64,000 bases of DNA, taken from the NCBI GenBank assembly GCA_946406145.1, contig CAMJJL010000001.1, positions 62,001-126,000 on the forward strand. Reading direction: 5' to 3'. The notes beneath the pieces were generated by a model. That model searched no databases and had not been told where the DNA came from. It saw nothing but the letters and a program-made list of their open reading frames with translations. The translations under genes were made by a program, and so were the position numbers. Source of the DNA: an uncultured Clostridia bacterium. GTDB taxonomy: Bacteria > Bacillota > Clostridia > Oscillospirales > Acutalibacteraceae. Of the stretch, positions 62,681 through 64,000 are shown piece after piece (positions within the stretch are counted from its first letter, which is position 1; each line of letters begins with the position of its first letter).

Positions 62681-64000
62681 ATGAGTAGAAATTCATCTAA
62701 CAAGAAAAAATCTACAAGTAAATATCGTAAGTTCAAAGTATCTCCTCTGATTGCCGTTATCGCAATCATTGAGGTGTTGGTTCTTATTGCCATTTCCTCC
62801 TATGCGTGGTTTATTGTAGTACGTGAGAAGCAGGCTAACACTGGTTTGATTTCCGTGGATGCGGATTCCGGCTTGAATATTGACTTCAAAAATGCGAACT
62901 ATGACGATAATATTAACCTATGGGATTATGTTGAAGATGATTTTGAGTTCAGTCCCGTAACATCTCTTGACGGACGAAACGTATTTGTTCCCACTTCCGG
63001 AACATTCGGTAATGATACAACGAATAAAATCGTTTTTCGTGATGCAACGATCAACGATATCAACACAAAATACGTTGACGTTGATTTTACCTTGACCAAT
63101 ACCAACGATAGTGAAGTCTATGTATATTTGAATAATGAATCTCATTTCAGAGTATATGATAATGCTGTTGCTCAGAATGGTGAAGAGATGAAGAACAGTC
63201 GCGCCCTGCGTCTGGCGTTCTATACGAATGACGCGAAGCACGGTAACGTTGGATCATCCATTCTTGAGAATACCAACAACGAGAATGCGGCGCTTGATAA
63301 ACTTGAGAATCGTGTTACCGTATATTTCAACAAACCTTCGCATTGGAACAATTGCTATGCCTATATCTGGAAACGTGTTAACTCCACAAACTATGAGGCT
63401 GTTTCCTGGCCGGGCAGCGAAATGACACACGTTGCCGGTACCGTGTATTCCTATACATTCTCTAATGTGGAAGAATATACCAGCATTGTATTTAACAACG
63501 GACAAAAAGATAATACAGTTACTTATGACAGCTCGCATACTACTACCTATACTCAGACTCGAGATCTGAGTATCTATACGCCTTCGAGCAGCTCTGATCC
63601 ATCCCATCTGTATGAAGGTAGTGCAGCTGCAAATTCAACCGGTTCAGCGTATAGGACAAAAACCGTCTATTTCCGCAAGCCGAATGACTGGACCGGAGTA
63701 CGCGCTCATGCGTTTAGAACACCCAATGAAACTAACTCACCTTCATTTACATCTTATCCCGGTGACGAATGCACTAACTGCGGCGCGGATATTTATTCTT
63801 ATACTTTCCCTGAGACCTACAACGGTAATACAATGGGCGGCATCGTTTTCAATAACCTTGCCAATCAAGATAACAAAACCCAAGACTTGGCAGCTGATGA
63901 CGGGGCGCTGTATTATTTCTCCAACGGCGGTTCCAATGGCGCTTGTACAAAAACGACATACTCCGAGAGTACTGTTTATTTTAATAATATCTTCAACTGG
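62681..64000 (+). CDS. surface protein with SipW-like signal and tandem CBM26-like starch-binding modules (3' end beyond window; absent from ORF track)
   Basis: 440 uninterrupted codons from ATG 62681; IAISSYAWFIVVR; repeats VTVYFNKPSHWNNCYAYIWKR..AVSWPGSEM..YSYTF..IVFNNG and KTVYFRKPNDWTGVRAHAF..SYPGDE..YSYTF..IVFNN, third starting STVYFNNIFNW. Confidence 0.8.
   Translation, partial: MSRNSSNKKKSTSKYRKFKVSPLIAVIAIIEVLVLIAISSYAWFIVVREKQANTGLISVDADSGLNIDFKNANYDDNINLWDYVEDDFEFSPVTSLDGRNVFVPTSGTFGNDTTNKIVFRDATINDINTKYVDVDFTLTNTNDSEVYVYLNNESHFRVYDNAVAQNGEEMKNSRALRLAFYTNDAKHGNVGSSILENTNNENAALDKLENRVTVYFNKPSHWNNCYAYIWKRVNSTNYEAVSWPGSEMTHVAGTVYSYTFSNVEEYTSIVFNNGQKDNTVTYDSSHTTTYTQTRDLSIYTPSSSSDPSHLYEGSAAANSTGSAYRTKTVYFRKPNDWTGVRAHAFRTPNETNSPSFTSYPGDECTNCGADIYSYTFPETYNGNTMGGIVFNNLANQDNKTQDLAADDGALYYFSNGGSNGACTKTTYSESTVYFNNIFNW

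What the first reader, a model, noticed from the sequence alone, without database searches (positions are those of the whole stretch)
62681..64000. Large ORF missed by the track: tandem CBM26-like modules behind a SipW-like signal
Because it has no stop before the window end it is not listed, yet 440 codons are open from a good ATG. It holds two complete and one beginning 'TVYFxKPxxW...WPGxE...YSYTF...IVFNN' units, the same family as the CBM26-like modules of the GH13 at 14497.
Basis: seen in the sequence. Interest (0 to 1): 0.8.

Follow-up and report, generated by a model that had tools for sequence, protein, structure and literature searches.

The report
Starch-binding subunit of swappable fibre locus
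A gut or rumen Ruminococcus carries a surface protein in which starch-binding modules are spliced into one loop of a secreted, fibre-subunit-like domain; it belongs to a conserved export locus whose exported genes are exchanged as a block between species, suggesting how such bacteria build and swap starch-gripping surface structures.

Summary
The ORF is real. It runs past the window end as an intact 1062-aa protein (window 62681 to about 65869) with two clear CBM26 modules (PF16738, 61.6 and 46.6 bits), a weak third one, a signal/TM segment ending in SYAWF, and no dockerin, LPXTG or C-terminal TM.

(1) The CBM26 block is nested. About 110 insert-free orthologues (mostly 416-449 aa) align on both sides of it (hhalign E=3e-29), so the modules sit in one hairpin loop of a SipW-substrate domain. 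(2) The gene belongs to a 12-gene locus with two SipW-like peptidases, seven SipW-type exported proteins, a membrane-anchored McrB-like NxD NTPase and a DUF2357/coiled-coil partner. This matches the "CoCoPALM" systems that Bell et al. 2024 named but left unstudied. (3) The six-gene cassette G-L (substrates plus SipW2) is replaced as a block. Flanks are 88-93% identical in DNA between close species, yet cassette proteins are only 33-59% identical, and gene trees conflict (AU p 1e-3 to 1e-67).

Most likely it is a starch-adhesive subunit of a SipW-dependent surface structure, outside the dockerin system. Export route and CBM26 identity are well supported. Starch binding is inferred from conserved aromatic residues. 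Fibre assembly and the NTPase's role are inferred only.

The parts
62681..64000 (+). Gene H: 1062-aa SipW-type substrate with nested CBM26 modules (continues to 65869 outside the window)
62729..62824 (+). signal/TM segment, residues 17-48, ending SYAWF
62825..63265 (+). N-terminal half of the host (SipW-substrate) domain, residues about 49-195; the C-terminal half is residues about 541-640, outside the window
63320..63511 (+). CBM26 module 1 (PF16738, 61.6 bits), aromatic triad Y228/W230/W243
63665..63886 (+). CBM26 module 2 (PF16738, 46.6 bits), triad positions H/F/Y
63974..64000 (+). start of a degenerate third CBM26-like module (residues 432-498, 5.5 bits)
61465..62580 (+). Gene G: SipW-type substrate (371 aa); DNA similarity to close species stops inside its signal-peptide codons (61530-61544)
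58995..61421 (+). Gene F: DUF2357 (McrC N-terminal type) plus long coiled coil, no nuclease domain detected
57336..58868 (+). Gene E: membrane-anchored McrB-like AAA+ NTPase; TM 46-83, Walker A GISGTGKT 220, NND motif of ANNDD at 350
56294..57238 (+). Gene D: conserved single-TM protein of the locus (weak DUF5067)
55264..56208 (+). Gene C: SipW-like signal peptidase 1 (TIGR02228 above cut-off)
54039..54830 (+). Gene B: SipW-type substrate, divergent behind its signal peptide
53100..53924 (+). Gene A: SipW-type substrate (TIGR04088 13.5 bits, below cut-off)

Best explanation
Gene H encodes a secreted surface protein handled by the locus's own SipW-like peptidases. Its conserved host domain is a SipW-substrate domain, probably a TasA-like fibre subunit. 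One hairpin loop of that domain, between strands ALRLAFY (175-181) and YAVISPG (541-547), carries two CBM26 modules and a degenerate third, and so would hold starch-binding modules out from the cell. The protein works with the other SipW-type substrates of a CoCoPALM-like locus whose membrane-bound McrB-like NTPase (E) and DUF2357/coiled-coil protein (F) I take to drive or control assembly. Substrates G-K and their peptidase SipW2 are inherited and exchanged as one cassette, while the D-E-F core stays. Shown: sequence architecture, nested insertion, locus conservation, linkage of E/F with SipW genes, block exchange. Inferred: cleavage by SipW, starch binding (conserved aromatic platform), fibre formation, and the role of E/F.
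For: CBM26 by HMM, by profile to the solved R. bromii Amy16 9qf9 (E=7e-15) and by fold to 6b15 and 2c3h. The aromatic platform positions of module 1 are aromatic in most of 75 relatives: Y228 is Y in 64, W230 is W/Y/F in 71, W243 is W/F/Y in 62. Nesting: short orthologues G005/G008 match residues 19-187 and then 533/554 onward directly; hhalign of 69 insert-free against 75 long proteins gives E=3e-29 with one large insert. Syntenic orthologues occupy the same gene position. E, F and SipW-like genes occur together in 10 of 12 loci from other clostridial genera. E is found in 40 of 50 high-quality congeners. Block exchange: DNA flanks 88-93% against a cassette that barely aligns, and gene trees with AU tests. 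H is the only one of about 13 CBM26 proteins of the genome with a SipW-type signal; eight carry dockerins. The segment behind the signal (43-65) has pLDDT below 50 yet holds invariant residues, as expected of an unpaired donor strand.
Against: Fibre formation is not shown. The insert-free model has no significant PDB match; TasA fibre 8aur is only rank 14 at E=0.10 and archaeal bundling pilus 7ueg rank 9 at E=0.08. Camelysin PF12389 finds nothing in the genome, and TIGR04088 does not reach its cut-off in the genome. Starch binding and export are untested. Module 2 has a poor aromatic triad, and the CBM26 fold could bind another glycan.
Confidence: 0.6

Rival explanations
1. H is an ordinary secreted starch-binding protein, an accessory of the dockerin-based (amylosome-like) degradation system, and its SipW-type signal and neighbours have no special bearing on its work.
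For: The genome holds 75 dockerin matches and eight CBM26 proteins with dockerins. NCBI names relatives simply 'starch-binding protein'. R. bromii amylosome proteins use CBM26 widely (PMC5814915, PMC9112005).
Against: H has no dockerin, lies in a SipW locus conserved in related species, and its host domain occurs without CBM26 in at least five syntenic orthologues.
Confidence: 0.2
2. The CBM26 fold is used here as a spacer or to bind another glycan (host mucin, neighbour cell wall, phage decoy); exposure to phage or immunity, not starch, drives the cassette exchange.
For: Exchange and divergence of exposed proteins beside a conserved core resemble antigen or serotype loci. Module 2 and 3 aromatic positions are poorly kept.
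Against: Module 1 keeps the aromatic platform across alleles. CBM26 recurs at other places in the substrates of the same locus: the H C-terminus, gene I, and a further substrate.
Confidence: 0.2
3. The locus is a defence (Type IV restriction-like) system, as McrBC relatives are, and the exported proteins are part of defence.
For: E is McrB-like with an NxD motif and F has DUF2357; the related CoCoNuT systems are predicted RNA-targeting restriction systems (PMC11090510).
Against: No nuclease domain was detected in F. The partners are signal peptidases and exported proteins in 10 of 12 distant loci. The locus sits at a fixed place beside radC-uvrB in the closer relatives and E is in most high-quality congeners, unlike patchy defence islands. 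McrB relatives have been co-opted before (PcdA, PMC10602043).
Confidence: 0.1

Closest known systems
CBM26 starch-binding modules (E. rectale Amy13K 6b15, B. halodurans 2c3g/2c3h, R. bromii Amy16 9qf9)
   Same: Sequence family, fold and the aromatic platform of module 1.
   Different: Those sit at the ends of, or between, domains of secreted amylases; here a tandem block is nested in a loop of a non-enzymatic SipW-substrate domain.
[quoted passage not shown] Bell et al. 2024, PMC11090510)
   Same: NxD McrB-like NTPase with an N-terminal TM segment, DUF2357 protein with coiled coil, linked signal peptidase genes.
   Different: Here the exported partners are laid out: seven SipW-type substrates, one with starch-binding modules, and a cassette exchanged as a block. 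The paper left CoCoPALMs for later work.
TasA/TapA/SipW biofilm fibres of Bacillus (PMC9674648)
   Same: Dedicated SipW-like peptidase and a TM-like signal followed by a beta domain with a low-confidence N-terminal stretch.
   Different: No significant sequence or fold match; a far larger locus with an NTPase; CBM26 inserts.
R. bromii amylosome (Sas20, Amy4, Amy16; PMC9112005, PMC5814915)
   Same: Surface display of CBM26-type starch binding in Ruminococcus.
   Different: The amylosome uses dockerin-cohesin pairs; H has no dockerin.

Membership tests
CBM26 (PF16738) | Profile score above the curated cut-off (28.1 bits) | tested here: met
   61.6 and 46.6 bits; module 3 only 5.5 bits with a home-made HMM
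CBM26 (PF16738) | CBM26 beta-sandwich fold | tested here: met
   AlphaFold model pLDDT 81; Foldseek 6b15 E=1.3e-6 prob 1.00, 2c3h prob 1.00
CBM26 (PF16738) | Aromatic binding platform | tested here: met
   Module 1 Y228/W230/W243, kept in most of 75 relatives; module 2 partly, module 3 not. That these match the ligand residues Y23/Y25/W36 of BhCBM26 rests on my own knowledge plus the alignment
CBM26 (PF16738) | Binds alpha-glucans | not testable with these tools
   needs a binding assay
SipW-dependent exported proteins (TIGR04088) | Match to the signal-peptide model | tested here: not met
   TIGR04088 not listed for P0002; no match over cut-off in the genome. The SYAWF motif and adjacent SipW-like genes are the only support
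SipW-type signal peptidase (genes C and L) | ER/archaeal-type signal peptidase I related to SipW | tested here: met
   TIGR02228 58.5 and 79.2 bits, over the cut-off of 51.85; NF046067 is similar but below its cut-off
TasA/camelysin fibre subunits | Sequence match to PF12389 | tested here: not met
   none in the genome
TasA/camelysin fibre subunits | Jelly-roll fold of TasA | tested here: inconclusive
   8aur rank 14, E=0.10, TMt 0.30; 7ueg rank 9, E=0.08
TasA/camelysin fibre subunits | Donor-strand polymerisation into fibres | not testable with these tools
   needs microscopy or complex prediction
CoCoPALM | McrB-like NTPase with NxD motif | tested here: met
   ANNDD at residue 350, Walker A at 220, DEMN at 291; AAA_5 match weak
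CoCoPALM | NTPase fused to an FtsB-like TM plus coiled-coil domain | tested here: inconclusive
   TM 46-83 shown; FtsB homology not found by Pfam
CoCoPALM | McrC-like DUF2357 partner with coiled coil | tested here: met
   PF09823 30.4 bits over cut-off 23.3, long coiled coil
CoCoPALM | Linked signal peptidase genes | tested here: met
   here and in 10 of 12 distant loci
Cellulosome/amylosome component | Dockerin or cohesin in the protein | tested here: not met
   none in P0002

The most novel reading that the evidence does not exclude
CoCoPALM loci are NTPase-powered assembly machines for SipW-processed surface fibres. In gut Ruminococcus the fibre subunits display starch-binding modules, and the whole subunit set with its own peptidase is exchanged between species as a cassette at a fixed site, like a serotype locus that sets what the cell grips.
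Probability: 0.35. Interest if true: 0.82.

Novelty: new variant of a known kind. Interest (0 to 1): 0.6.

Why it matters
The parts have names (CBM26, SipW, CoCoPALM), but the combination is not described in the papers searched. It gives a concrete clue to what CoCoPALM loci make: exported, in one case probably starch-binding, surface proteins rather than a nuclease. It also points to a second, dockerin-independent route by which starch-using gut bacteria may hold starch, and to a locus where adhesive subunits are swapped as a block. All three ideas can be tested in cultured Ruminococcus or with purified modules.

Tried and rejected
Dockerin, cohesin or LPXTG anchor on H: no dockerin or cohesin domain in Pfam, no LPXTG at the C-terminus and no C-terminal TM. 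PF12389 camelysin and TIGR04088: no support. Foldseek of the insert-free orthologue: nothing significant, so TasA-likeness stays a suggestion. The Enas match (PF13157, 14.5 bits, below cut-off 22) was dismissed. A chimeric contig was rejected because the same locus and gene order recur in many independent assemblies. Plain rapid divergence of exposed proteins was rejected as the sole cause of cassette differences: L041 keeps 82-97% in the cassette at the same flank divergence at which L045 and L047 fall to 33-59%, and trees conflict strongly. Literature searches for SipW with Ruminococcus or with carbohydrate-binding modules found nothing relevant.

Full report
OBSERVATION. The frame from ATG 62681 is open to the window end. 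The window is G000:C1:62001-126000, and L009 gives the continuation. The frame ends at L009 4869, giving 1062 aa (P0002). Close homologues of similar length occur in several assemblies (94%, 81% and 78% identity). Pfam gives two CBM26 modules, at residues 214-277 and about 329-402. A home-made HMM from 19 CBM26 modules of this genome gives 55.4, 52.7 and 5.5 bits for three modules, so the third is a degenerate relative.

NESTED MODULES. Relatives in the same genus carry short proteins (411-444 aa) that match P0002 residues about 19-187 and then residues 533/554 onward with almost nothing between. A search with one of them found 110 further relatives, mostly of 416-449 aa and none with a precomputed Pfam domain. 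A profile of 69 of these aligned to a profile of 75 long proteins at E=3e-29 as one alignment with a single large insert in the long family. The insert lies between strands ALRLAFY (175-181) and YAVISPG (541-547). The AlphaFold model of a 94% identical homologue (pLDDT 81, pTM 0.81) is a string of beta domains. Foldseek finds CBM26 of Amy13K and BhCBM26 in it. The profile also finds R. bromii Amy16 (9qf9, E=7e-15). I read this as CBM26 modules placed in a loop of a pre-existing secreted domain; the polarity (gain rather than loss) is likely but not proved.

BINDING SITE. Alignment to 2c3g puts Y228, W230 and W243 at the positions of BhCBM26 Y23, Y25 and W36 (the ligand role of these is from my own knowledge). 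They are Y in 64/75, W/Y/F in 71/75 and W/F/Y in 62/75 relatives; module 2 has H/F/Y, and module 3 has lost the platform.

LOCUS. Around H lies a 12-gene locus. A (53100), B (54039): SipW-type substrates. C (55264): SipW-like peptidase. D (56294): TM protein. E (57336): McrB-like AAA+ with TM 46-83, Walker A and an NND motif followed by D. F (58995): DUF2357 and coiled coil. G (61465), H, I, J, K: SipW-type substrates. L: second SipW-like peptidase (L009 11221-11808). radC and uvrB follow. SipW2 has a perfect TTGACA-17-TATAAT in front, behind a terminator-like hairpin (such scans are weak evidence). The order recurs in the related loci from named Ruminococcus MAGs and, with small rearrangements, in unnamed congeners. 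E is present in 40 of 50 high-quality congeners and in 15 of 292 genomes sampled from the class. In 10 of 12 of those distant loci E and F again stand beside SipW-like and/or SipW-signal genes; the two exceptions lack them. Bell et al. 2024 (PMC11090510) describe NxD McrB systems with a TM/coiled-coil fusion, coiled-coil McrC homologues and signal peptidase genes, name them CoCoPALM and leave them for later. The locus fits that description.

BLOCK EXCHANGE. Against L041 the DNA is about 88% identical along the whole locus. Against L045 it is 89-92% up to window 61544, inside the signal-peptide codons of G, then only scattered patches of 69-74%, and again 78% from 72309 (SipW2/radC) and 92% from 73962. 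Against L047 it is 88.5% up to 61530 and 89% from 72882. Protein identities window/L045: E 99, F 96, radC 97, uvrB 99, but G 41, H 39, I 33, J 36, K 43, SipW2 59; window/L041: 82-99 throughout. L045 and L047 also differ from each other in the cassette. Trees of F, radC and uvrB support the clade window+L041+L045+L047 (D supports window+L047; E is too conserved to decide). G, H, I, K and SipW2 reject it (AU p 1.3e-4, 2e-61, 2e-31, 4e-67, 1.1e-3) and place window+L041 with G023 (L062), whose F is only 72% identical. The clade was first suggested by DNA identity. Genes B and C show a second divergent stretch between conserved A and D. CBM26 modules recur at other positions of substrates of this locus: the H C-terminus, gene I, and a further substrate.

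WHERE IT STANDS AMONG STARCH PROTEINS. The genome has 21 CBM26 matches and 75 dockerin matches, no PF00963 cohesin. Of about 13 CBM26 proteins eight carry dockerins; H is the only one with a SipW-type signal.

MECHANISM. Proposed: E and F at the membrane control or power assembly; SipW-like peptidases release substrates; substrates assemble on the surface, probably by donor strand as in TasA (PMC9674648); H holds CBM26 modules out on a loop and grips starch. The stretch behind the signal is predicted unstructured (43-65, pLDDT below 50) although it holds invariant residues, which fits a donor strand but does not prove one. Fold comparison with TasA is inconclusive.

VERDICT. Starch binding, cleavage and fibre assembly remain to be tested.

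Noticed in passing
window 49530-50873 (with 44893-49219): Tyrosine integrase (PF00589, 74.9 bits) behind ORFs without Pfam matches: probably a small integrated element ending about 2.2 kb upstream of gene A.
   Followed up: partly
window 54139-56228: Second divergent stretch: gene B behind its signal peptide and SipW1 differ from close relatives while A and D are conserved, so B-C may be a second exchanged cassette.
   Followed up: partly
G000 contigs (75 places): 75 dockerin (PF00404) matches but no PF00963 cohesin: scaffoldins must have divergent cohesins or be missing from the assembly.
   Followed up: no
window 51372-52616 (-): GT87-family glycosyltransferase (PF09594) beside the locus.
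   Followed up: no
L079:10713-13019, L083:14072-16363: GGDEF/EAL cyclic-di-GMP proteins stand close behind E-F-SipW loci in two distant genera, a possible regulatory link.
   Followed up: no
L062:14370-15913: In G023 the otherwise highly conserved E gene is split into two overlapping frames (frameshift or assembly error).
   Followed up: no
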